Shown in pieces: positions 14,532 through 28,950 of a DNA stretch of 64,000 bases (the stretch's first letter is position 1; each line of letters begins with the position of its first letter). The stretch comes from Terriglobia bacterium (GTDB lineage Bacteria > Acidobacteriota > Terriglobia > Terriglobales > Acidobacteriaceae). The notes below the pieces were generated by a model. It was not told where the DNA came from, searched no databases, and saw only the letters and a program-made list of their open reading frames with translations. The stretch spans positions 1-64,000 of the forward strand of contig JAIQGK010000003.1 in assembly GCA_020072645.1 (NCBI GenBank), written 5' to 3'. The position numbers were made by a program, and so were the translations under genes.

Positions 14532-14776
14532 ATTCTTGAAGATACACCAGCCTGGCTGTAACTTTCGTTAAATTTTCACTCGGTGGGCGGAATGGGCGAT
14601 TTTCGGCCATAGGGAGCTTGGCCATTAACCTCAGGTCAATCACCGCGACAAAATCGAAACTTTGAATCAGCCTTGCGCATCATATGTTGACGGTCTTTTG
14701 TTGTGCCCAAGGTGCATTTTGTGGGCCAAAGATTTACTATGTCTGCCCTGTTGGTTTGAGTGACAGGATTCCCCCT

Positions 14777-16087
14777 ATGGCTCACCTGAAATCGGTTTTG
14801 ACATTTCCGCCCGCGTCGGCCGAAGAGCGCGCCCTGGCGTCGCTCGCCAGCCAGTATGTTTCCGTGCGCCAGCAGACGGACGCGCTCGCTGCCCCACTGA
14901 CTCCCGAAGATTTAATGGTGCAGTCCTGTCCGGAAGCGAGCCCGGGCAAGTGGCATCTGGCGCATACCAGTTGGTTCTTTGAGACGTTTATTCTTTCCAG
15001 CCATCTGCCAGGGTACCGATCTTTCCATCCGCAGTTTCGCGATCTATTTAATTCTTATTACAACGCGGTTGGCCAGCAGCCGGAAAAGGCTCTGCGCAAT
15101 ACCTTCTCGCGTCCTGCGCTGGAAGAAATCCGGAAGTATCGCGCGCACGTGGATGAACACATGCGCAAGCTGCTGCAATCAGGCGCGGTGGCCGCGGAAG
15201 CGCAGAAACTTGTAACGTTGGGGCTGAACCATGAGCAACAGCATCAGGAACTGATCGTTACCGATATCAAGCATGGGTTCTGGAGCAACCCACTGCATCC
15301 GGCATATCAGACGGCAGTGGCAGCGCCGACTACTGACAGCGCGCCGCAGCAGAAGCCGCAGCTTTATCCTGAAGGGCTGTATGAGATTGGCGCTGAAGGC
15401 GAGTCGTTCTATTTCGATAATGAAGGCTCGCGACACAAAGTTTTTCTGCGCCCATTCCGCTTTGCCATGCGCCTCGCAACGTGCGGCGAATATATCTCCT
15501 TCATGGAAGACGCCGGCTATTCGCGGCCTGAACTGTGGCTCTCTGACGGCTGGAAGGCCGTGCAGACGCATCGCTGGAAAGCGCCGCTATATTGGGAAAA
15601 ATCTGGCGGGAAGTGGATCCAGTTCACCTGCTCCGGCATGCGCAACGTGGAAGAAGCCGAGCCGGTCTGCCATGTGAGTTATTACGAAGCCGACGCGTTT
15701 GCCCGCTGGGCCGGTGCCCGCCTCCCTACCGAGTTTGAGTGGGAAGTGGCCGCAAGCCGAGTCCCCACCGTCGAGGGCAATCTTTTGGAGAACGGCAGGT
15801 TTCATCCCGTAGCGGCTCCTATGTCGCTGGAGAACGGTGTGCCGCTCCAACTCTTTGGCGATGTCTGGGAGTGGACGGCAAGCGCCTATCTTCCATATCC
15901 CGGCTATAAGCCCGCTGCCGGCGCGCTGGGTGAATACAACGGCAAATTCATGAGCGGACAGATGGTCCTGCGTGGCGGATCGTGCGCCACGCCGCGCTCG
16001 CACATTCGCGCCACGTACCGCAATTTTTTCCCTCCAGAAACACGCTGGCAATTTTCCGGAATAAGGCTGGCTGACGATGGCAGTTAA
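14777..16087 (+). CDS. egtB: ergothioneine sulfoxide synthase EgtB
   Basis: A 436-residue iron enzyme that joins trimethyl-histidine (hercynine) to a sulfur donor thiol with oxygen, the key step of ergothioneine synthesis. The N-terminal DinB-like domain holds the iron ligands: a His in HLAHTSWFFE (about residue 63) and the pair in LNHEQQHQEL (H152, H156, plus E158). The C-terminal formylglycine-synthase-like domain includes RLPTEFEWEVAA, DVWEWTASAY and the closing RGGSCATPRSHIRATYRNF. The frame opens at 14684, but the ATG at 14777 with AGGA upstream is chosen because homologues start near here. It overlaps egtD by 11 bases, so the two are translated together. No egtA, egtC or egtE is adjacent. 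Confidence 0.92.
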   Translation: MAHLKSVLTFPPASAEERALASLASQYVSVRQQTDALAAPLTPEDLMVQSCPEASPGKWHLAHTSWFFETFILSSHLPGYRSFHPQFRDLFNSYYNAVGQQPEKALRNTFSRPALEEIRKYRAHVDEHMRKLLQSGAVAAEAQKLVTLGLNHEQQHQELIVTDIKHGFWSNPLHPAYQTAVAAPTTDSAPQQKPQLYPEGLYEIGAEGESFYFDNEGSRHKVFLRPFRFAMRLATCGEYISFMEDAGYSRPELWLSDGWKAVQTHRWKAPLYWEKSGGKWIQFTCSGMRNVEEAEPVCHVSYYEADAFARWAGARLPTEFEWEVAASRVPTVEGNLLENGRFHPVAAPMSLENGVPLQLFGDVWEWTASAYLPYPGYKPAAGALGEYNGKFMSGQMVLRGGSCATPRSHIRATYRNFFPPETRWQFSGIRLADDGS

Positions 16088-17033
16088 AAGCCCTGCACTA
16101 CTTGTTAGTCCTATTGCGGAAGAAGTATTGCGCGGACTGACCGCGCGACCGCGGCGGCTGCCGCCTAAACTTTTCTACGATGCCGCCGGGTCGCACCTGT
16201 TCGAGCAAATCACTGAGACTCCAGAGTATTATCCCACGCGCACCGAGCGCGCCATCCTGAAGAAATATGCGGGCGAGATCATTCGCCAGGCTGGGGTCAA
16301 TATCACTCTGCTGGAACTGGGCGCCGGCAGCGCCAGCAAGACCCAAGTCCTGATTGAAGCGCTGCTGCGCCGCCAGCTGCGCGCGGATTTTTATCCCGTG
16401 GATGTTTCGTCTTCGGCCTTGCAGGGCGCTCTGAAAACTTTAAACGGGCATTTTCCACGGCTGCGCGTGAGCCCAATCGTTGCAGACTACACTCATAGAA
16501 TCCCAGACCTCAGCTCGCTTCCCGGACGCAAGCTGGTGCTCTTCATCGGCTCGACCATCGGCAACTTTGAGCCTGATGAAGCTATGGCGTTCCTCAAGAG
16601 CGTGCATAGTTCACTTCAACCGGGCGACGCATTGCTCATCGGCTTTGATCTCATCAAAGACGGAGATGTCCTCCACGCGGCTTATAACGACGCACAGGGC
16701 GTGACCGCCGCTTTCAACAAGAACATGCTGGTGCGCATCAATCGCGAACTGGGTGGCAGCTTTGACGTTGATTCTTTTGAGCACGTGGCCCTGTGGAACC
16801 GCAGAAAGTCACGCATTGAAATGCACATGGAAAGCCTGTATGAACAAACCGTGTGGGTGCAGGACCTGGGCCGCGGCTTCCACTTTGAAAAAGGCGAGCG
16901 CATCCATACTGAGAACAGCTACAAGTTCAATACCGCCTCCATTGCGCGGCTGCTGCGCCGCAGCGGCTTCAAGCTGGAAACGCAATGGACTGACGCGCAA
17001 CGCTGGTTCTGCGAGGCGCTGGCCAGGGTGTAG
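16077..17033 (+). CDS. egtD: L-histidine N-alpha-methyltransferase EgtD
   Basis: A 318-residue SAM-dependent enzyme that trimethylates histidine to hercynine, the substrate of EgtB. Diagnostic segments are LPPKLFYDAAGSHLFEQITETPEYYPTRTE near the N-terminus (given here only as an approximate span, residues 24-53), the SAM loop LELGAGSASKT, DVSSSAL, FIGSTIGNFEPDEA and the C-terminal RIHTENSYKF that closes the histidine pocket. Length matches the family. The start ATG lies inside the last codons of egtB, an 11-base overlap, so expression is coupled. Ergothioneine is a cytosolic antioxidant, consistent with an aerobic soil lifestyle. Confidence 0.94.
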   Translation: MAVKSPALLVSPIAEEVLRGLTARPRRLPPKLFYDAAGSHLFEQITETPEYYPTRTERAILKKYAGEIIRQAGVNITLLELGAGSASKTQVLIEALLRRQLRADFYPVDVSSSALQGALKTLNGHFPRLRVSPIVADYTHRIPDLSSLPGRKLVLFIGSTIGNFEPDEAMAFLKSVHSSLQPGDALLIGFDLIKDGDVLHAAYNDAQGVTAAFNKNMLVRINRELGGSFDVDSFEHVALWNRRKSRIEMHMESLYEQTVWVQDLGRGFHFEKGERIHTENSYKFNTASIARLLRRSGFKLETQWTDAQRWFCEALARV

Positions 17034-18447: not shown

Positions 18448-20325
18448 GTGACACGAAAATCCGAGCTTGAGACCATGTCTGCTGCTGCGCAGCCTGTCTC
18501 CAGAAAAGCTGATGCAGAGAAAATCGCGGACAGACCGAAGAAGCGTAAGCGCCTGACAATGCGGACGTTGCTACGTCCCCATGCCGGAGCGCTTGCTCTT
18601 GGGTTCCTTGCGGTATTGGGTGAAGCTATTGCGAACCTGCTGCAGCCGTGGCCGCTTAAGATCGTCCTGGATGAGGTATTTAAGAATCACGCTGGCAGAT
18701 CTGATCTGCCTCACTTCGTCTATACATTCGTGGGAGCCGATAAGTTTGCCACCATCAAGTTTGCCTGCATTGCGGTGATGGCCATCGCTCTTCTTGATGC
18801 CATCTCTACCTACGGAGAAAAGTACCTGACCACCAGCGTTGGGCAATGGGTCACATACGATCTGCGGCGCGCAATTTATGCTCACATGCAGCGCCTGTCT
18901 CTGGCTTTCCACGATCAGAGCCGGACTGGCGACCTCATCAGCCGAGTTACAACCGACGTGGACGACATCCAGACCTTTATCGCTTCAGGTCTGTTGAGTT
19001 CAGTGATCAATGTGCTGACTCTTGTTGGCATGATCGGCGTGATGTTCTGGCTGAACTGGCGTTTTACGTTGATTGCGCTTTCCGTTGCGCCGATTCTCTT
19101 TCTGGTGGTTTATAGCTACACGCGCCGCATCAAGAAAGCCGCGCGCAAAGTCAGGAAAAAAGAGAGCGCAGTTTTCTCTGTGGTGGAAGAAGTCTTGTCT
19201 TCCATTCGCGTCGTCAAGGCTTTTGCGCGGGAAAGATATGAGCAGGAGAGGCTGGAAGAAGCCAGCCTTGCCGAAGTGGAATCGTCACTGCGTGCCCGCA
19301 GCCTGAAAGCAAAACTCACGCCGCTGGTGGATGTGATTGTTGCTGCCGGAACGTGCCTGGTGTTGTGGTTCGGCGCGCGGCTTACGCTTAGCGGCACTTT
19401 GTCAGTAGGATCGATGGTGCTCTTTGTGCAATACCTGAGCAAGATGTACAAGCCCATGCAGGAACTTTCCAAGATGACCGACACCTATTCCAAGGCCGCC
19501 GTGGGCTATGAGCGCATCCAGGAAATCCTGCAAACCGATAATGAAGTTCACGATCTTCGCGGCGCCAAGGCCGTAAAAAAACTAAAAGGGAAGATTGAGT
19601 TTGAGCACGTTTCCTTTGCCTACTTGCCTGACCAGCCCATTATCCAGAACATGAGTTTTTGTATTGCGCCGGGACAGGTCGCGGCTGTGGTTGGCCCCAC
19701 CGGTGTTGGCAAGACGACAATTTTAAGCCTGGTGCCGCGGTTCTACGATCCCAATGAAGGCGTAATAAAAATTGACGGCATAGACGTGAGAAAGATCAAG
19801 CAACAATCGCTCCGGCAGCACATCAGCTATGTCTTGCAGGAGAACGTGCTATTTCACGGGCCGCTGTGGCAGAACATTGCGTATGGCAAGCCGGAAGCGT
19901 CGAGGAAAGAGATTGAGCGGGCCGCCGAACAGGCCAATGCCATGGAATTTATTGAAAAACTGTCACAAGGTTTTGACACGATCGTGGGTGAACGCGGCAT
20001 GACACTTTCCGGCGGACAGCGTCAACGGATCGCGATTGCTCGCGCCATCATCCGCAATACGCCGATCCTGATGCTGGATGAGCCGACGTCAGGGCTGGAC
20101 GCGGCGTCTGAAAAATTGGTATTTGAGGCGCTGGACCGGCTGATGGAAGGGAAAACCACCATCGTGGTTGCACACCGCCTTTCAACCATTCGCCGCGCTG
20201 ATGTAATTTTTGTTGTGAATGAAGGCGCCATTGTGGAGCAAGGCGGGCATGAAGAACTGCTCAAAGCACGTGGCCTGTATTCGGAATTACATAAACTTCA
20301 GTTCAAGGGCGAGGAAGCCGCCTAG
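18448..20325 (+). CDS. ABC exporter, fused permease and ATPase (MsbA-like)
   Basis: A 625-residue half-transporter that works as a homodimer in the inner membrane. About 35 basic residues precede six transmembrane helices (roughly residues 40-330), with the conserved loop YDLRRAIYAHMQRLSLAFHD (residues about 135-154). The ATPase has Walker A GPTGVGKTT near 414, the Q-loop YVLQENVLF, the signature LSGGQRQR near 521 and Walker B ILMLDEPTSGLD near 540, then the H-loop VAHRLST. The GTG start at 18448 is favoured by GGGAAGGA 9 bases upstream; an ATG nine codons later is possible. The family exports lipids, glycolipids or peptides; the cargo is not given by its neighbours. Confidence 0.9.
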   Translation: MTRKSELETMSAAAQPVSRKADAEKIADRPKKRKRLTMRTLLRPHAGALALGFLAVLGEAIANLLQPWPLKIVLDEVFKNHAGRSDLPHFVYTFVGADKFATIKFACIAVMAIALLDAISTYGEKYLTTSVGQWVTYDLRRAIYAHMQRLSLAFHDQSRTGDLISRVTTDVDDIQTFIASGLLSSVINVLTLVGMIGVMFWLNWRFTLIALSVAPILFLVVYSYTRRIKKAARKVRKKESAVFSVVEEVLSSIRVVKAFARERYEQERLEEASLAEVESSLRARSLKAKLTPLVDVIVAAGTCLVLWFGARLTLSGTLSVGSMVLFVQYLSKMYKPMQELSKMTDTYSKAAVGYERIQEILQTDNEVHDLRGAKAVKKLKGKIEFEHVSFAYLPDQPIIQNMSFCIAPGQVAAVVGPTGVGKTTILSLVPRFYDPNEGVIKIDGIDVRKIKQQSLRQHISYVLQENVLFHGPLWQNIAYGKPEASRKEIERAAEQANAMEFIEKLSQGFDTIVGERGMTLSGGQRQRIAIARAIIRNTPILMLDEPTSGLDAASEKLVFEALDRLMEGKTTIVVAHRLSTIRRADVIFVVNEGAIVEQGGHEELLKARGLYSELHKLQFKGEEAA

Positions 20326-20337
20326 AAAAGTTTTCCA

Positions 20338-21354
20338 TCATAATTGGTTCAGCTCGGCAATGCGGACCTGTACAACTTTGGTGAAGGCTGCTGCTTTGTC
20401 TGGCGGATAGCCGCCGGCGCGAAAGGCATCGAGGATTTGGTCCGTGGAGAGATGGGCGAGCAAAGATCCCAGCCACTTTGCGTCAGCCCGCGGCACGTGG
20501 TTTCCGACCCATCGCATATGGACTTGGTGAATGTAGCTGGGCAGGACAAGCAGGTGGAGCAGCGGCGGCCGGCGAGGGAAGTTGAAGTCCACATGATCCG
20601 GCGCGACCCTGGAGATGAACCTGGCCTTTCTGTATTCCTTCAAATTATTTTTTGACGCGGCTTCGGTCCAGTGCTTGCCGGAAGCGCCGAAAGCTGTGCC
20701 CACGTCAGTGACAAGATACTGTTGCTGGCCGTTTTTGTCGGTGAAGATGCCGTTGTTCTCGTCCTTGAGGTCCCAGTTGCTCAATAAAACCATCATTACC
20801 CGCAGCCCATTGAACTCGCGTGTGCCGAAAAATGGATTGTGGCGCCAGCTCCAGTTGGCTTCTTTCTTTTCATCACCACGGTGCCGCTGAAGGCGGGCTC
20901 CATCAATATGGTCCGGAGAAATCACGTGCCCTTGCCCGCGGTGCAGGTGGCCGGGAAGGCCCTTCACTTCCAGGTCGGCACAGAAATAGTTTTCATTGGT
21001 GAAATAGCCTATGGCCCATAGCAGCCGGGTGGCTACTACTTCTGGCTGGGCCTCAATTCCCAGCTTGGCTTTCCACTTTGTCCCATTCGCGTCCTCAACA
21101 TCGAACTTGGAATTTTGTCCGTGCTTATCTTCTTTCAAGAATTTCAGCGGCAATTGCGGACGATGCTTTTCTCCGCCGGGACCGTTCAACAGGTCTTTTG
21201 ACTTGATGTCGCCAGGTTCATGCCAGATAGCGTGTGCGACGGACGAACTATCCCCGTTCTCTTTTTGGCCCAACGCGGGCAAAGCTGTGGCGACGACCAG
21301 CACGGCGAGTGCAAATAGCCATCGGCGAAAAGACGCGTAACCGCAAGAAGGCAT
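20338..21354 (-). CDS. exported protein with protein-kinase-like catalytic motifs, function unknown
   Basis: A 338-residue protein. The frame opens at 21495, but the ATG at 21354 gives a clear signal sequence (RRWLFALAVLVVATALPALG). I do not recognise a named family. The layout suggests a kinase fold: a strand with K95/K97 (GTKWKAKLG) followed by a Glu-bearing helix (E101/E105, RLLWAIGYFTNENYF), then a catalytic-loop-like NWDLKDEN (D195, K197, N200), which parallels the HRDLKxEN loop of Ser/Thr kinases, then VTDVG (D217-V-G219), which parallels the DFG metal-binding motif. Exported kinases of the Fam20 and CotH types are known, so this could modify secreted proteins or sugars. It converges with the ABC exporter (12 bases apart) and diverges from the phospholipase D-like gene. 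Confidence 0.6.
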   Translation of the reverse strand: MPSCGYASFRRWLFALAVLVVATALPALGQKENGDSSSVAHAIWHEPGDIKSKDLLNGPGGEKHRPQLPLKFLKEDKHGQNSKFDVEDANGTKWKAKLGIEAQPEVVATRLLWAIGYFTNENYFCADLEVKGLPGHLHRGQGHVISPDHIDGARLQRHRGDEKKEANWSWRHNPFFGTREFNGLRVMMVLLSNWDLKDENNGIFTDKNGQQQYLVTDVGTAFGASGKHWTEAASKNNLKEYRKARFISRVAPDHVDFNFPRRPPLLHLLVLPSYIHQVHMRWVGNHVPRADAKWLGSLLAHLSTDQILDAFRAGGYPPDKAAAFTKVVQVRIAELNQL

Positions 21355-21505
21355 GAGAGTACCCGAAAGTTGGATGCTGATTTCGGGGCGGAGGAACAGC
21401 CAAAGCCACGGCCAAAGCCGCAGGCCAGAGCTGCATCTAACTATTCTGGTAGGCGCGCGGCCACCAGGAAGTCTCAATTCACTATGTGGAGACAAAGGAG
21501 CACCA

Positions 21506-22588
21506 TTGAAGCTGATCGTTCAGCCGGCGGATGGCGCCGCGCCCCTGCTCAAAGCCATCAAACGGGCCAAGAAAAGTATTGAAATTGTTATTTTCCGCTT
21601 CGATCAGACAGAGATCGAGCACGCACTGGAAGATGCCGCCCAGCGAGGCGTTTTTGTCCATGCGCTGATCGCATTTACCAATCGCGGTGGTGAGAAAAAT
21701 CTGCGCAAGCTGGAAATGCGGTTCCTGGAAAAAGGAATCACGGTCGCGCGGACCGCGGACGACCTGATCCGCTATCACGGCAAAATGATGCTTGTGGACG
21801 GCAAGGAACTCTATTTGCTGACCTACAACTTTACCCATCTGGACACGGAGCGGAGCCGCAGCTTTGGCATTGTGACCAGAAACCGCGAACTGGTAAAGGA
21901 AGCATCGCGACTTTTTGCCTGTGACACGCAGCGGCAAACTTATAAATCCAGTTCGAAGAAGTTTCTGGTTAGCCCGGTGAATGCGCGGCAGGTCCTAGAG
22001 ACGTTCCTGAAGGGAGCCAAGAAGGAACTTCTGATTTATGACGTCGACATCGCGGACAAAGAAATCCTGCGCATCTTGCAGGAGCGATTGCAGGTGGGAG
22101 TGCAGGTCAAGATCATCGGGCACGTTTCCCGCAACCGGCATCTTTCCGCGCGCGTATTTAAGCGCATGCGGCTGCACACGCGGGTGATCATTCGGGATTG
22201 TAAACAGGCATTTCTGGGCAGCCAGAGTATGCGCAAGCTTGAACTGGATGAGCGGCGCGAAATCGGCATGATTGTGAACAACGCCAAGGTCGTCAGTTCC
22301 ATGGTTACGGTTTTTGAAGATGACTGGAAGGCATCAACGCCGGCGGACCGTCGCGCTGACAAGAAACGCGTGAGTGCGAAGGCGGAACGGACATCGAGGA
22401 AAGTCAGCAAGGCTGTGAGAAAAAAGCTTGCCCCGGCCACGGTGGTGCAACAGGTGGTTAAGGTCATCGAGAAGGAAGCAAACGTGGAAGTAGATCGCGA
22501 CGAAGCGCGCGAAATGGTAAAAGGCGCGCTGGCGAAAGCAGTGAAGAAGACAGCGGCAAAGATCGTGGAAGAAGCGGTAGCGGAGTAG
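21506..22588 (+). CDS. phospholipase D-like protein with a basic C-terminal tail
   Basis: A 360-residue PLD-superfamily protein. The start is set at a TTG (21506) because a strong ribosome-binding site, AAAGGAG, lies 5 bases upstream and the protein fold begins there (LKLIVQPADGAAPLLKAI); the frame is open back to 21353 without a good start. The first half has a complete HxKx4D motif (HGKMMLVD near residue 91) followed by LLTYNFT. The second half has HTRVIIRD near residue 224, where Arg replaces the Lys, followed by FLGSQSM. The last 85 residues are rich in Lys, Arg and Ala. There is no signal peptide. Relatives include cardiolipin synthase-like and nuclease-like enzymes; the altered second motif makes activity uncertain. 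Confidence 0.75.
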   Translation: MKLIVQPADGAAPLLKAIKRAKKSIEIVIFRFDQTEIEHALEDAAQRGVFVHALIAFTNRGGEKNLRKLEMRFLEKGITVARTADDLIRYHGKMMLVDGKELYLLTYNFTHLDTERSRSFGIVTRNRELVKEASRLFACDTQRQTYKSSSKKFLVSPVNARQVLETFLKGAKKELLIYDVDIADKEILRILQERLQVGVQVKIIGHVSRNRHLSARVFKRMRLHTRVIIRDCKQAFLGSQSMRKLELDERREIGMIVNNAKVVSSMVTVFEDDWKASTPADRRADKKRVSAKAERTSRKVSKAVRKKLAPATVVQQVVKVIEKEANVEVDRDEAREMVKGALAKAVKKTAAKIVEEAVAE

Positions 22589-22635: not shown

Positions 22636-23208
22636 ATGATGTTCTTTATGAAGCTTCACGCTTCCACAAGTTGGCTGTCATTGAGCTTGCTCGTGGTTTT
22701 CTTGTTCTCGTGCGCGATGGCGCAAGAAGGAAACGACGGCGCGGTCAAGGAGTTCCAGGACCGGATAGGCAACTATCTATCGGCGAAGAAGAAACAAGAC
22801 ATCGTGAAGAAGCCGACTGACTCTCCCGGCAAGCTCGCTGAAGAAAAGCAAAAGACGGCAGAAAAGACCCAGCAGGCACGCCCAGAGGCCCAACGCGGAG
22901 ATATCTTTACGCCGGCGGTTTCGGCTTATTTCAAAAAGCAGATTGAGAGCACGTTGCGTGGACCCGAGGGCGGCAAAATCCGCGCAAGCCTCCGGCATGC
23001 CGAGCCGTTGCCAAACGTGCAACTGCGGGTGAATGCAAAATATCCCAGGAACCTGCCGCTGCAATCGACCCCTCCGACGCTGCTGAAGCACCTGCCGCCA
23101 CTTCCCAAAGAGCTTCAATACCGGATCGTGGGTTCAACGCTGTTGCTCTATGACATGGCTTCCGGTCTAGTTGTGGACTTTATTCCCGGAGCGGTACCGG
23201 CGGCATGA
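22636..23208 (+). CDS. exported hypothetical protein, coupled to a phosphoesterase
   Basis: A 190-residue protein with a signal sequence (LSLLVVFLFSCAMA). ATG codons at 22636, 22639 and 22648 compete; AAGG at 22632-22635 fits the last one best by spacing. The mature part is a charged, helix-prone Lys/Glu/Gln segment (about residues 30-85) and a C-terminal globular part with LPPLPKELQYRIVGSTLLLYDMASGLVVDFIPGAV, read here as residues 154-187. That last segment (a strand ending L-L-D-x-x-x-x-x-V-V-D) resembles the last strand of small periplasmic proteins of unknown role. Its TGA overlaps the ATG of the metallophosphoesterase (ATGA), so they are made together and probably act together. Not otherwise recognised. 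Confidence 0.65.
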   Translation: MMFFMKLHASTSWLSLSLLVVFLFSCAMAQEGNDGAVKEFQDRIGNYLSAKKKQDIVKKPTDSPGKLAEEKQKTAEKTQQARPEAQRGDIFTPAVSAYFKKQIESTLRGPEGGKIRASLRHAEPLPNVQLRVNAKYPRNLPLQSTPPTLLKHLPPLPKELQYRIVGSTLLLYDMASGLVVDFIPGAVPAA

Positions 23209-24131
23209 AACAAAGCAGAGTAACGATCTACCGAAACGTGATGATGCTTGTTGCAACGCTGGCATTGGCGCTGGTGGGACACGTGCGAGTGGCCCAGGCA
23301 GATCCAGGAGCAGTAGCATCGCAAGCGGAGTCCGCGGGCAAGCTTGATGTCAGAATTCCGCTGCTGGACAAGTCAGTGCGATTTGCCGTGATCGGAGACA
23401 GTGGGACCGGCGCTCGGGCGCAATATGAAGTGGCGCAGATGATGGAAGCCTATCAGCAAGCTACAAAATTCGATTTCGTAATCATGCTGGGTGACAACAT
23501 TTACGGCAGCCACTCGCCGAGAGACTTTGTTAAAAAATTTGAGCAGCCTTACAAGCCTCTGTTGGATGCGGGGGTGAAGTTTTACGCGTCGCTGGGCAAC
23601 CACGACGATCCCGACGACGAACGGCTCTACAAGCCCTTCAACATGGGCGGTGAACGTTATTATGCGTTTCGCAAAGGCGAAGCAGCGTTTTTTGCGCTGG
23701 ACAGCAATTACATGGACCCCAGACAGCTCAGCTGGCTCGACCAGAACCTGAAGAACTCGCAAGGCACATGGAAAATCTGTTTCTTCCACCATCCTTTATA
23801 TAATGATGGCCGTCACCATGGCGCTGACTCTGATTTGCGCACGCAGGTGCTTCCCCTGTTTGAGCGCTACGGCGTGAATGCTGTGTTCTCAGGCCATGAA
23901 CACGTCTACCAGAGAATCAAGCCGGAAAATAATATCTACTACTTTGTTCTGGGCAATTCCGGCAAGCTGATGACGCATGACTTTGGCGAAGCCAGAGAGC
24001 GGGTGAAAGGCTTTGATTCCGACCAGAGTTTCATGCTGGTGGAGATTGCGGGCGACAAGCTGTACTTCCAGACAATTTCACGCAGCGGTGAAACTATTGA
24101 TTCCGGCGAGCTGCCGCGAATTCATCCATAG
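23205..24131 (+). CDS. exported metallophosphoesterase (purple acid phosphatase-like)
   Basis: A 308-residue protein with a signal sequence (MMLVATLALALVGHVRVAQA). Metal-binding blocks appear in order: FAVIGDSGTG, MLGDNIYG, SLGNHDDPDD, ICFFHHPLY and FSGHEHVYQR. This is the set used by tartrate-resistant/purple acid phosphatase-type enzymes, which hydrolyse phosphate esters in the periplasm. The gene is translationally coupled to the preceding exported protein through a 4-base overlap. A short hairpin with a U-tract lies 27 bases after the stop. Confidence 0.87.
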   Translation: MKQSRVTIYRNVMMLVATLALALVGHVRVAQADPGAVASQAESAGKLDVRIPLLDKSVRFAVIGDSGTGARAQYEVAQMMEAYQQATKFDFVIMLGDNIYGSHSPRDFVKKFEQPYKPLLDAGVKFYASLGNHDDPDDERLYKPFNMGGERYYAFRKGEAAFFALDSNYMDPRQLSWLDQNLKNSQGTWKICFFHHPLYNDGRHHGADSDLRTQVLPLFERYGVNAVFSGHEHVYQRIKPENNIYYFVLGNSGKLMTHDFGEARERVKGFDSDQSFMLVEIAGDKLYFQTISRSGETIDSGELPRIHP

Positions 24132-26307: not shown

Positions 26308-28950
26308 TTAATGGACTCGGATCGTTATAGTTGCCGTCGGATTTGACGTATCGATCCCGTCAAAGCTGACTGTGCCTGTGGGCAGCAACTGCAAGTTGTT
26401 CTGGTTGGGCGCGGTGATGTTGACCGTCACTTTCATGACCGTAACCGGGTTTGCCGATTTGGGGCCGCCGAGGCTGGCAATGCTGCAGAGCACCAGGTTT
26501 GTGTTGATCAATCCCGGAACAGGTGCATTGCATGTGACGGGATTGCTGCCGCTATTTGGAGTGGCGGTCACTCCAGTAATCGTCAGCAGGCTGTCAATGT
26601 TCAGCGCGAGCAGGAGATTGTTTGCCTGAACGCCTGTAGTGTTTTGGACCGTCCAGGTCAGAGTTCCCGCCTGTCCTGGGTTGAGGCTGGTGGGCAGGCC
26701 ATTGCCTGAAATCGGGACGGAGATTTGCGCCGAGCCGGTTGGCGGAGGCGCTCCAGGAGGCGAAGTAGTGCGGTGCTCCTCCTTGAAAGTGGTGGATGAC
26801 CCGGCCACATCATTTGCCGTGACGCGCGAGGTGAGCGTGATCTGCGCTTTCTGCATTTGCACAGCCACATCAATGACAACCACCTGGCCAGGAGCCATGT
26901 TACCTAGCCCACAAGCCACGTTTGTTACGCCCGTCCCGCCCGCCGTGCAGGTTCCCTGTGGCGGCTCAGTAACAATGATGAATGCTCCGTCCGTGGTGCT
27001 GAGAACGTTGTTCACGATCACATTAGTGACCGGGAAGAGCGAGGTATTTGTGACCGTGACTTCATAGGAGACAATCGCCGGTACAGGATTTTGCGAAGGC
27101 GGTCCCGAGACCAGGATTTTCATCACCGGGACGTTGGCGGCTGAAGGCGTGATTGGAGCTGAAGGATCCGATTCCAGACCATCTCCTCCAGCACTTGTGG
27201 CATGGACGGTGAAGCTGTACGCCGTGCCGTCAGTGAGTCCGGAGACGATGGTATTCACGCTGCTGCTGCTCGGGGCGGCAATGGTTGAACTGATACCCGT
27301 GGGAACGCCGTTCACCAGAGCGGTCACCGTATAAGAAGTAATCAGCGTGCCGTTGCTATTGATGGGAGCTGTCCAGGAGACATATGCCTGCGTGTCTCCG
27401 GCAATCGCACCGACGCCGGTTGGCGCGGCAGGAATTCCGGCGCCTAGCGGCACCACATTGCTGGGTGCTGATAGCGGACTGGAACCCTGTGCATTGCTGG
27501 CGGAAACCTGGAATTGATATGCCACGTTTTGCGCAACATTAATGTTGGCGGATGTGGGCGGGAAGAGACCGCCACCAAGCGGGGCGACCAACACGTCTGG
27601 AAGCAGAAGACCGTTGGACGCGAAGTTGTTATGGACGGTATAGCTGGTGATCGGCTGGGCCACCTGCGCGGGACTCCATGCGATAGCTGCAGGTAACGTG
27701 CCGCCGCCGGTAGCGATGACATCGAGCGGAGCTCCGGGAGGCGCGGGCGCGGCGGATGTTTGTGTGGTCTGGAACAATCTTCCGGCTCCGGCTGTGCCAA
27801 GAGCGCTGGGATCGTCACCAGCGTACACAATGAGGTTCGCAGGATCGGTCCCATCAATTCCTACGGACGTGACATTGGAAAGCGGATTCGCAGACGAGTT
27901 GGTGTAGGTGAGAGTAAGGGTCTGACCTGCCGAACCACCCGTGACGTTCCCGACCCACGCGACATCCGTGGGCAAGCCAATATAAAGATTGTTGCCATTG
28001 ATGGCGGGATAGAACTGGTCGCCAGTCATGGCCGTAGCGCCAACGATAGAGGGAAGGGTGAGCTTGATTGTGCCATTGCTGGAACTGCACGCCGGGTTGG
28101 TGCCAACGAGGCAAACCGTATCAGCATTGGGAATTACGAATACAGATTCAGGACTGGCGCCCCAAAGATCGTGTCCCATCCATGCAATGCCCGCGCCCAC
28201 GCGATTATTGGGGATGGTGGCAACGTTCTGCATGAACTGGCTGCACGTTCCAAAGTTCGTAGATGTAACGGCACCTGGATTGTTGAACTTAAATATCAGC
28301 GCAGCCTTGGCCAGGCCGACCCAGAGATTACCTTCAGGATCGAGAGCGGCGGAGTTAGGAAAGAGCTGAGAGCCGGGCAAAGCGCAACCGGTCTGTCCTG
28401 CGGGAAAGATGCTGCCGGATGGACTGCCGCCCAGACTGAAGAGCGATGTTTGATCCAACGATCCATTGCCGTTGTCTCCGGCGGGAAGATAGCTGATTCT
28501 AAAAATACCTTGAGAGACGCGCTGATTGTCGACGAAGTAAAGCAGGTTGTTGCCCGGGTCAAGGGCCATGGCTCCGCCCAGAATGGCAAAACCCGAGAGG
28601 CAGGTTGCAGGATTGATGGCATAAGGCCCCGGAGAATCGAGATCGGGATCCATGCGGCAGAGGCCCGCGGTGGCGTCGCCTACCCAAAGGTGGCGGATTG
28701 GTTGATTTGTGACCGGGCTCAGAGCTGTGCCATAAAGCACCTGAGCGCCCGTGGGAGCGGTGATTGAACTCTGTGCAGGTGTGCCGGCAAACTGGATTGT
28801 GCTGGTAGTTGGGGTGATCGTTGATTGGGCGTTTGCTGAAAAAGTTGCAAACGCGAAGAAAACTGCAAGGCAAAACAAAACTGCCGTGGACTTTCCGCGC
28901 AAAACAGATTTGCTTGCCGCCAATGTAACAGCCGTAATATAGGGTCTCAC
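26308..28950 (-). CDS. secreted beta-propeller/FN3/DUF11 protein
   Basis: An 880-residue exported protein starting at a GTG (28950) with GGAAGG 7 bases upstream. Order of parts: signal sequence (LFCLAVFFAFATFSANA), a propeller-like region of about 350 residues with HLWVGDATAGLCRMDPD (near 87-103), DPEGNLWVGL and GHDLWG blades, two fibronectin type III domains (about 400-600; PITSYTV, GTAYSFTVHAT), then two DUF11-type domains (SYEVTVTNTSLFPVT and LTWTVQNTTGVQ). There is no membrane anchor or sorting signal at the C-terminus. It is a close paralogue of the next gene upstream. Propeller plus FN3 and DUF11 suggests a surface or matrix protein. It has a conserved hairpin leader. Confidence 0.75.
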   Translation of the reverse strand: MRPYITAVTLAASKSVLRGKSTAVLFCLAVFFAFATFSANAQSTITPTTSTIQFAGTPAQSSITAPTGAQVLYGTALSPVTNQPIRHLWVGDATAGLCRMDPDLDSPGPYAINPATCLSGFAILGGAMALDPGNNLLYFVDNQRVSQGIFRISYLPAGDNGNGSLDQTSLFSLGGSPSGSIFPAGQTGCALPGSQLFPNSAALDPEGNLWVGLAKAALIFKFNNPGAVTSTNFGTCSQFMQNVATIPNNRVGAGIAWMGHDLWGASPESVFVIPNADTVCLVGTNPACSSSNGTIKLTLPSIVGATAMTGDQFYPAINGNNLYIGLPTDVAWVGNVTGGSAGQTLTLTYTNSSANPLSNVTSVGIDGTDPANLIVYAGDDPSALGTAGAGRLFQTTQTSAAPAPPGAPLDVIATGGGTLPAAIAWSPAQVAQPITSYTVHNNFASNGLLLPDVLVAPLGGGLFPPTSANINVAQNVAYQFQVSASNAQGSSPLSAPSNVVPLGAGIPAAPTGVGAIAGDTQAYVSWTAPINSNGTLITSYTVTALVNGVPTGISSTIAAPSSSSVNTIVSGLTDGTAYSFTVHATSAGGDGLESDPSAPITPSAANVPVMKILVSGPPSQNPVPAIVSYEVTVTNTSLFPVTNVIVNNVLSTTDGAFIIVTEPPQGTCTAGGTGVTNVACGLGNMAPGQVVVIDVAVQMQKAQITLTSRVTANDVAGSSTTFKEEHRTTSPPGAPPPTGSAQISVPISGNGLPTSLNPGQAGTLTWTVQNTTGVQANNLLLALNIDSLLTITGVTATPNSGSNPVTCNAPVPGLINTNLVLCSIASLGGPKSANPVTVMKVTVNITAPNQNNLQLLPTGTVSFDGIDTSNPTATITIRVH

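What the first reader, a model, noticed from the sequence alone, without database searches (positions are those of the whole stretch)
20338..21354. Possible exported protein kinase of a new family
A signal peptide is followed by Lys and Glu in the right order, NWDLKDEN (like the HRDLKxEN catalytic loop) and, 22 residues after its Asp, DVG (like DFG). I know no named bacterial family with this set that is exported. It lies beside an exporter and a PLD-like enzyme and could phosphorylate secreted proteins or glycans.
Basis: inference. Interest (0 to 1): 0.75.

Follow-up and report, generated by a model that had tools for sequence, protein, structure and literature searches.

The report
Exported kinase family beside polyphosphate enzymes
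A soil bacterium carries a secreted-looking protein that resembles a working kinase of an unnamed family, and its relatives often sit beside genes for polyphosphate-type enzymes much as an unrelated spore-coat kinase does elsewhere, which hints at a phosphate-transfer system outside the cell.

Summary
Window 20338-21354 (minus strand) encodes a 338-residue protein with a signal-peptide-like start, K97, E101/E105, NWD195LKDEN200 and D217VG. In 87 aligned relatives K97, E101, D195 and D217 are invariant, E105 is kept in 86, N200 in 78. No Pfam, NCBIfam, PHROGs or PDB sequence family claims it. Two AlphaFold2 models (pLDDT 89.7, 92.8) match kinases; the second ranks CtkA, HipT, Fam20C and HipA highest. 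So the kinase reading is well supported. The family, found here only in Acidobacteriota, is not a sequence member of CotH, HipA or Fam20.

The gene context adds to this. Relatives sit beside PPK1, a PLD-like enzyme and/or membrane protein DUF4956. Of 73 DUF4956 genes in 396 Acidobacteriota genomes, 31 have a CotH-type gene within 5 kb (two of them doubtful), 21 this family or a sister, none both. CotH pairs with VTC or PLD-like; the new kinases with PPK1 or PLD-like. A CotH / polyphosphate-polymerase / DUF4956 set is published (PMC7112168). I read the protein as the extracytoplasmic kinase of a CotH-like, polyphosphate-linked module; the window's lineage has an ABC exporter and no DUF4956. Export, activity, donor and substrate are unproven.

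The parts
20338..21354 (-). Exported-looking kinase-like protein, 338 aa (P0001); founding member here of family 'kinA'
   Evidence: Translation; conserved motifs; AlphaFold2 model pLDDT 89.7; Foldseek hits
21268..21354 (-). Signal-peptide-like N terminus (residues 1 to about 29, ends ALG)
   Evidence: Read from the sequence. Crude hydropathy test on relatives: 63 of 78 N-terminal stretches pass, 10 of 78 have a lipobox-like motif
21064..21066 (-). K97, beta-3-type lysine
   Evidence: 87 of 87
21040..21042 (-). E105, likely alpha-C glutamate (E101 also invariant)
   Evidence: 86 of 87; lines up with a Glu of sister families
20770..20772 (-). D195, catalytic-loop aspartate of NWDLKDEN
   Evidence: 87 of 87
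20755..20757 (-). N200, catalytic-loop asparagine
   Evidence: 78 of 87; 8 Gln, 1 Gly
20704..20706 (-). D217 of DVG, likely metal-binding aspartate
   Evidence: 87 of 87, with G219 87 of 87
18448..20325 (+). ABC exporter (MsbA-type by domain order, recalled), recurrent neighbour, convergent with the kinase
   Evidence: PF00664/PF00005; ABC within 5 kb of 20 of 70 well-flanked kinA genes
21500..22588 (+). PLD-like enzyme, divergent from the kinase; also scores just above the Pfam cut-off of PP_kinase_C_1 (26.0 against 25.7 bits)
   Evidence: PLD-like within 5 kb of 19 of 70; HxKxxxx[DEN] pattern in 21 of 21 proteins of the PLD set
22636..23208 (+). Small exported-looking protein (sp190), recurrent neighbour; possible substrate (inference)
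   Evidence: No credible Pfam family (relative); within 5 kb of 13 of 70, some of these frames overlap others and were not checked singly
23205..24131 (+). Exported-looking calcineurin-like phosphoesterase (MPP), recurrent neighbour
   Evidence: PF00149 E 4e-20; within 5 kb of 17 of 70

Best explanation
The protein is a signal-peptide-bearing atypical kinase of the protein-kinase-like fold (HipA/Fam20/CotH side of that fold), of an unnamed family found so far only in Acidobacteriota. It works outside the cytoplasm. There K97/E105 hold the nucleotide, D217 the metal, and D195 activates an acceptor hydroxyl of a protein or glycan. It does the job that CotH does in a module made of an exported kinase, a membrane protein (DUF4956; in the window's lineage an ABC exporter instead) and a polyphosphate-type phosphoryl-transfer enzyme (VTC, PPK1 or PLD-like). 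Shown here: sequence conservation, predicted fold, recurrent gene context and swapping of parts. Inferred: export itself, catalytic activity, acceptor, phosphate donor, the equivalence of ABC exporter and DUF4956, and the polyphosphate link of the PLD-like version.
For: Invariant catalytic residues in 87 members. AlphaFold2 models of two members at pLDDT 89.7 / pTM 0.85 and 92.8 / 0.88. Foldseek in the PDB: the listed hits that name a molecule are kinases, led in the second search by CtkA (E 8e-6), HipT, Fam20C and HipA. Sister families with the same motif order, some with a literal DFG. Gene context: of 70 distinct kinA genes with at least 4 kb held on both sides, 33 have DUF4956, PPK1, VTC or PLD-like within 5 kb, 38 if ABC is counted. 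Six loci have PPK1, kinA and DUF4956 in that order on one strand (L036, L038, L039, L214, L216, L217; frames 0-24 bp and 0-1146 bp apart). DUF4956-centred test: of 73 DUF4956 genes in 396 genomes, 31 have a CotH-type gene, 21 have kinA and/or kinB, 0 both, 21 neither. PLD-like, VTC and PPK1 alternate in one slot. The quick tree needs at least 12 changes of the enzyme slot and 10 of DUF4956. A second kinA copy of the window's genome follows an ABC gene on the same strand with abutting frames. Published precedent CotH / polyphosphate polymerase / DUF4956 (PMC7112168, passages).
Against: No sequence-family match to a known kinase beyond one HipA_C hit at E 0.05 in 87. Profile-profile scores to HipA, HipA_2 and CotH are weak and unstable: CotH 54% with A1 but 2-3% with A2. 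TM-scores are only about 0.2-0.5 with rmsd of 7-26 A. N200 is replaced in 9 of 87. 25 of 89 distinct kinA genes have none of the tracked partners within 5 kb. In the window's genome there is no DUF4956 (0 matches) and the one PPK1 lies on another contig, so the polyphosphate link of the window's own copy rests on its kin. 21 of 73 DUF4956 genes have no such kinase nearby, and of 18 CotH-type frames rechecked with Pfam one is under the cut-off and one has no CotH match. ATP is not expected to be plentiful outside the cytoplasm (general knowledge).
Confidence: 0.6

Rival explanations
1. An exported kinase that phosphorylates an envelope glycan or lipid rather than protein, in the way that Fam20B phosphorylates xylose (recalled); ABC exporter and PLD-like enzyme would then serve the same envelope lipid or glycan.
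For: The Terriglobia version couples the kinase to an ABC exporter and a PLD-like enzyme, a set that would fit envelope lipids. Fam20C structures are among the fold hits.
Against: Other branches have PPK1, DUF4956 and DSP/PTP-type phosphatases. None of the ten recurrent neighbour clusters whose representative I scanned is a glycosyltransferase; clusters 9, 11 and 12 were not scanned.
Confidence: 0.22
2. The kinase fold has been turned to another transfer (AMP as in SelO, glutamate as in SidJ; recalled) or the protein is a pseudokinase that regulates a neighbouring enzyme.
For: N200 is lost in 9 of 87 members, including three that sit beside PPK1 (L214, L216, L217). Fold similarity alone does not give the chemistry.
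Against: K97, E101, D195 and D217 are invariant in 87 of 87, unusual for a pseudokinase. A signal peptide would separate it from cytoplasmic PPK1.
Confidence: 0.13
3. Not a kinase: an unrelated exported alpha/beta protein with chance motifs.
For: No accepted Pfam kinase match in 36 or 87 members; modest TM-scores.
Against: Two confident models whose named PDB hits are kinases, and invariance of exactly the kinase residues.
Confidence: 0.04

Closest known systems
CotH kinases (PF08757; Bacillus spore-coat kinase)
   Same: Kinase-like fold (5jd9 among the hits); in the same phylum the same partners DUF4956 and PLD-like, with VTC where kinA has PPK1. Export of CotH proteins in some bacteria is general knowledge.
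   Different: No CotH match in 36 or 87 members; profile-profile score 54% with 36 rows but 2-3% with 87 rows; different polymerase partner (PPK1).
CotH / poly-phosphate polymerase / DUF4956 accessory gene set next to pel genes of streptococci, clostridia and bifidobacteria (PMC7112168, passages read)
   Same: CotH-type kinase + polyphosphate polymerase + DUF4956.
   Different: Here the kinase is kinA or kinB and the polymerase slot holds PPK1 or a PLD-like enzyme. Whether pel genes lie near was not searched.
HipA / HipT / CtkA kinases
   Same: Best structural matches of the second model.
   Different: HipA and HipT are cytoplasmic toxin-antitoxin kinases (general knowledge); HipA_C matches 1 of 87 members, at E 0.05 only.
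HipA_2 (PF20613, HipA-like kinase)
   Same: Sister family C approaches it: one member at E 9e-4 under the Pfam cut-off, hhalign 93.5% against 0.7% for the reversed control.
   Different: kinA alone scores 0.5-0.7%; a mixed A+C profile 75%.
Fam20C secretory-pathway kinase
   Same: Acts on secreted material in animals (general knowledge); structural hits 5yh0, 4kqa and 4kqb.
   Different: Eukaryotic, 9-13% identity in the hit lists, no Pfam match.

Membership tests
Protein-kinase-like (PKL) fold | Conserved Lys, Glu, catalytic Asp, Asn, metal Asp in order | tested here: met
   87 of 87 for K97, D195, D217; 86 for E105; 78 for N200
Protein-kinase-like (PKL) fold | Two-lobe kinase architecture | tested here: met
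   On predicted models only: Foldseek hits that name a molecule are kinases, E down to 8e-6, TM up to 0.50/0.53. Coordinates could not be inspected.
Protein-kinase-like (PKL) fold | Phosphate transfer | not testable with these tools
   Needs an assay
CotH (PF08757) | Sequence match to the family model | tested here: not met
   0 of 36 at E up to 1 and 0 of 87 at E up to 0.1
CotH (PF08757) | Profile-profile similarity | tested here: inconclusive
   54% with A1 against 13 CotH rows; 2.2% and 3.1% with A2 against 13 and 39 rows; reversed controls 0.1-0.2%
CotH / polymerase / DUF4956 module | Kinase beside DUF4956 | tested here: met
   For the family: 15 of 70 well-flanked kinA genes; 16 of 73 DUF4956 genes. 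Not met for the window's own copy (no DUF4956 in G000).
CotH / polymerase / DUF4956 module | Kinase beside a polyphosphate polymerase | tested here: met
   For the family: PPK1 within 5 kb of 8 of 70. Not met for the window's own copy, which has the PLD-like gene.
HipA (PF07804) | Sequence match to HipA_C | tested here: not met
   0 of 36 at E up to 1; 1 of 87 at E 0.05
HipA (PF07804) | HipB antitoxin partner | not tested
   No HipB model was run; not among the ten neighbour clusters scanned
HipA_2 (PF20613) | Sequence or profile match | tested here: not met
   0 of 36 and 0 of 87 in Pfam; hhalign 0.5-0.7%
Fam20C | Pfam match | tested here: not met
   Not among the families listed for 36 or 87 members
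PI3/PI4 kinases (PF00454) | Pfam match | tested here: not met
   Not among the families listed for 36 or 87 members

The most novel reading that the evidence does not exclude
The module exports phosphoryl groups: the polymerase (VTC, PPK1 or the PLD-like enzyme) with DUF4956 or the ABC exporter delivers polyphosphate across the membrane, and the exported kinase uses it, in place of scarce external ATP, as donor or attaches it to surface proteins or glycans. This would be a kinase-fold enzyme that runs on polyphosphate outside the cell, arrived at by two kinase families (CotH and this one).
Probability: 0.12. Interest if true: 0.92.

Novelty: new variant of a known kind. Interest (0 to 1): 0.62.

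Why it matters
Exported kinases seem to be few in bacteria, and where their phosphate donor comes from outside the cytoplasm is an open question (general knowledge). Here two kinase families that do not match each other by sequence, CotH and this one, are tied to the same membrane protein and to three alternative phosphoryl-transfer enzymes. That makes the idea of a polyphosphate-linked extracytoplasmic phosphorylation system directly testable, for instance in culturable Terriglobus strains, gives DUF4956 a functional setting, and adds an unnamed kinase family that is spread through Acidobacteriota.

Tried and rejected
Pfam best hit of the window protein, B3 DNA-binding (E 0.079, far below cut-off), rejected as noise. 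The PDB sequence search found nothing with the protein and one irrelevant hit at E 1.2 with A1. Plasmid tblastn and one IMG/VR scan found no relative, so no sign of mobile carriage there. PHROGs none. PI3/PI4K family in 60 genomes of the phylum: matches in 4, none over the cut-off. CotH homology by profile looked promising with 36 rows (54%) but fell to 2-3% with 87 rows, so I do not claim common descent beyond the fold. HipA_2 is approached by sister family C only. sp190 as substrate is an untested idea. Paper searches for an earlier description. From the listings, titles and abstract starts I saw no paper on this family; of the papers opened only PMC7112168 links CotH, a polyphosphate polymerase and DUF4956, and PMC11677781 (passages) names CotH and polyphosphate polymerase genes in one C. 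perfringens locus. Absence from print is limited to those searches of an open-licence library.

Rows dropped. From the first alignment: L008, L033, L034, L045 (fragments, contig ends or a broken frame), L009 (partial, sister type), L032 (protein identical to L026) and repeat loci of the same genes (L012, L014, L015). From the second: L033 and L034. In the neighbourhood count 2 of 91 kinA genes as duplicates (L032; L041 or L187, identical). Well-flanked counts leave out 19 of 89 genes with under 4 kb held on a side, and the short loci L046-L075 were not used for them. The 60 wide loci were picked by hand from the stronger rows, so the kinA counts are not a census; the DUF4956 test used all 73 places. 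CotH-type genes there were assigned by a profile at E up to 1e-6: 18 were rechecked with Pfam, 16 over the cut-off, L273 under it, L271 without a CotH match. VTC was assigned by a profile of three proteins that Pfam confirms; the other VTC frames were not rechecked.

Full report
1. The observation. The minus-strand frame 20338-21354 codes for 338 residues. A basic, hydrophobic N terminus ending in ALG looks like a Sec signal peptide (read from the sequence). Pfam, NCBIfam, PHROGs and a PDB sequence search give nothing credible.

2. Relatives. A peptide-pattern and tblastn search of the GTDB species genomes found 30 loci, all with titles that I know as Acidobacteriota (one, L045, matches over 43 residues only). 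In the window's genome and its relatives 9 of 61 genomes match. A profile of 36 members (A1) matches 66 of 396 genomes sampled over the phylum at E up to 0.001; the weaker of these rows are sister families. The window's genome has three copies. None was found in the plasmid collection or in one IMG/VR scan. Presence in other phyla was tested only by the short-peptide scan, which reaches close kin.

3. Conservation. Over 87 members (A2) K97, E101, D195, D217 and G219 are identical in 87, E105 in 86, N200 in 78 (8 Gln, 1 Gly). Three of the Gln rows (L214, L216, L217) sit beside PPK1, so that branch may have altered chemistry. N-terminal hydropathy, a crude test, passes in 63 of 78 stretches and 10 of 78 have a lipobox-like motif; of the 15 failures several are stretches that my script cut short.

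4. Fold. The window protein with A1 gave pLDDT 89.7, pTM 0.85. The 50 PDB rows shown are kinases wherever a molecule is named: DAPK family, VPS34, Golgi casein kinase (Fam20 type), PI4K, RIO2, CotH 5jd9 and, with the best TM-scores (0.43/0.50), CtkA. In the viral library hits include PI3/4-kinase-like and Ser/Thr kinase proteins but also long phage proteins with other or no names and two nidovirus polyproteins. A second member, from a PPK1 operon (L217), with A2 gave pLDDT 92.8, pTM 0.88; its list is led by CtkA (E 8e-6), a kinase 7wcf, HipT, Fam20C and HipA. Some rows carry only inhibitor or 'MDT protein' titles; that these are PI3K-type and HipA entries is recalled. TM-scores of about 0.2-0.5 with rmsd of 7-26 A mean fold-level kinship, not close relation. 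Coordinates could not be inspected.

5. Sister families and known families. The A1 profile finds two more families, B (frames of 361-446 residues, one of 742; 12 rows) and C (492-617, one of 901; 7 rows), with the same motif order; some of C have a literal DFG and HDDxxxxN. Some of the printed members start with a signal peptide or lipobox by eye; this was not tested for all. hhalign gives A-B 99.8%, A-C 99.1%. C reaches HipA_2 at 93.5% against 0.7% for the reversed control, and one C member matches HipA_2 in Pfam at E 9e-4, under its cut-off. A alone does not: HipA_2 0.5-0.7%, HipA 7-33%, CotH 54% with A1 but 2-3% with A2; the reversed controls of A and A2 are all under 1%. So membership is claimed for the kinase-like fold only.

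6. Neighbours. In the window lineage MPP - sp190 - PLD-like - kinase - ABC recurs (8 of 89 genes have all four partners, 10 more ABC and PLD-like). In other branches the kinase lies directly after PPK1 on the same strand and before DUF4956, with a DSP/PTP-type phosphatase nearby on the other strand: L036, L038, L039, L214, L216, L217 (L039 is titled Pyrinomonadaceae, L036 and L038 are alike). Two loci join both worlds as PPK1-kinase-ABC on one strand (L043, L209). Of 89 distinct kinA genes, 70 have at least 4 kb held on both sides. Within 5 kb these 70 have ABC 20, PLD-like 19, metallophosphoesterase 17, DUF4956 15, DSP 13, sp190 13, PPK1 8; any of DUF4956/VTC/PPK1/PLD 33, with ABC 38. 25 of the 89 have none of the tracked partners. 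Of 19 PPK1 rows printed (several the same gene twice) 16 show the KTHxK motif, the other three being cut frames; my pattern for the second His motif is found in 9 (that these His residues are catalytic is recalled). PPK1 is present twice in G083, G096, G171 and G406; in G133 the only copy is the one beside a kinase; G413, G253 and the window's genome have one copy each, on a contig without a kinA hit, in the window's case C6 while its kinA genes are on C3 and C7.

7. An independent test from the partner's side. PF16316 (DUF4956) has 73 places in 396 genomes of the phylum. I took about 6 kb on each side where the contig allowed and scored kinases and enzymes with profiles. Within 5 kb: CotH-type 31 (17 with VTC, 11 with PLD-like, 3 without), kinA 16 (3 PPK1, 6 PLD-like, one of these also with kinB, 7 without), kinB alone 5 (3 PLD-like, 1 PPK1, 1 without), none 21 (8 with VTC, 1 PLD-like, 12 without). 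CotH and kinA/kinB never share a DUF4956 place (0 of 52). A Pfam recheck of 18 CotH-type frames put 16 over the cut-off, L273 under it and L271 without a match, so CotH is 29 to 31. By my own arithmetic a chance meeting within 5 kb in a 5 Mb genome is of the order of 0.2% per gene copy, so under one of 73 would be expected. Pfam confirms VTC next to CotH in L229, L231 and L240, and PLD-like next to CotH in L233, L296 and L309. On a quick kinA tree (SH-aLRT support only) the enzyme slot needs at least 12 changes and DUF4956 at least 10, so these ties were made or lost several times.

8. What it most likely does. A CotH / poly-phosphate polymerase / DUF4956 set is in print next to pel genes of streptococci, clostridia and bifidobacteria; the authors suggest that the CotH-like kinase may regulate Pel (PMC7112168, passages). 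CotH of B. subtilis phosphorylates serines of coat proteins CotB and CotG, and a D228Q mutant is inactive (PMC7821199, passages). The Acidobacteriota data show the same three-part module with another kinase and other enzymes. I therefore read the window protein as the extracytoplasmic kinase of such a module, with the ABC exporter perhaps standing where DUF4956 stands elsewhere. The step from context to mechanism is inference. PLD-like enzymes, PPK1 and VTC share phosphoryl transfer (general knowledge), and the window's PLD-like protein just passes the Pfam cut-off of PP_kinase_C_1 (26.0 against 25.7 bits), which hints, no more, at polyphosphate.

9. Novelty. The searches list no paper that I recognise as describing this family. 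The kind of thing (exported atypical kinase in a polymerase/DUF4956 module) is known; the family and the partner swaps are new to me. Hence 'new variant of a known kind', interest 0.62.

Noticed in passing
window 21500-22588: The PLD-like neighbour also passes the Pfam cut-off of polyphosphate kinase C-terminal domain 1 (26.0 against 25.7 bits); its second HKD-like half seems to lack the His (read from the sequence).
   Followed up: partly
L296, L298, L300, L302, L304, L305, L307, L308, L309, L311, L233: CotH loci in which a PLD-like protein takes the place of the VTC polymerase beside DUF4956.
   Followed up: partly
L280, L281, L284, L286, L289, L295, L299, L320: VTC plus DUF4956 without any of the tracked kinase types within 5 kb; an unrecognised kinase could be there, or contig ends hide it.
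   Followed up: no
L282, L290, L293, L301, L303, L306, L312, L313, L315, L317, L318, L319: DUF4956 genes with neither kinase nor polymerase recognised within 5 kb.
   Followed up: no
L271:6489-9170, L272, L275, L276, L277: Proteins beside VTC and DUF4956 with a C-terminal beta-helix region and a weak or (L271) no Pfam CotH match; a divergent CotH branch or another kinase type.
   Followed up: partly
L083:1506-3245 and relatives (family C): Kinase-like family of about 490-620 residues, some with a DFG motif, that links to HipA_2.
   Followed up: partly
L225 (G000:C7:199637-212572): Second kinA copy of the window's genome: ABC, kinase and an sp190-like gene on one strand with abutting or nearly abutting frames.
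   Followed up: partly
window 14684-17033: Two adjacent ORFs that look like EgtB- and EgtD-type ergothioneine genes (recalled, no search run).
   Followed up: no
window 26308-28950 (minus): Large 880-residue exported-looking repeat protein with fibronectin-like segments (read from the translation).
   Followed up: no
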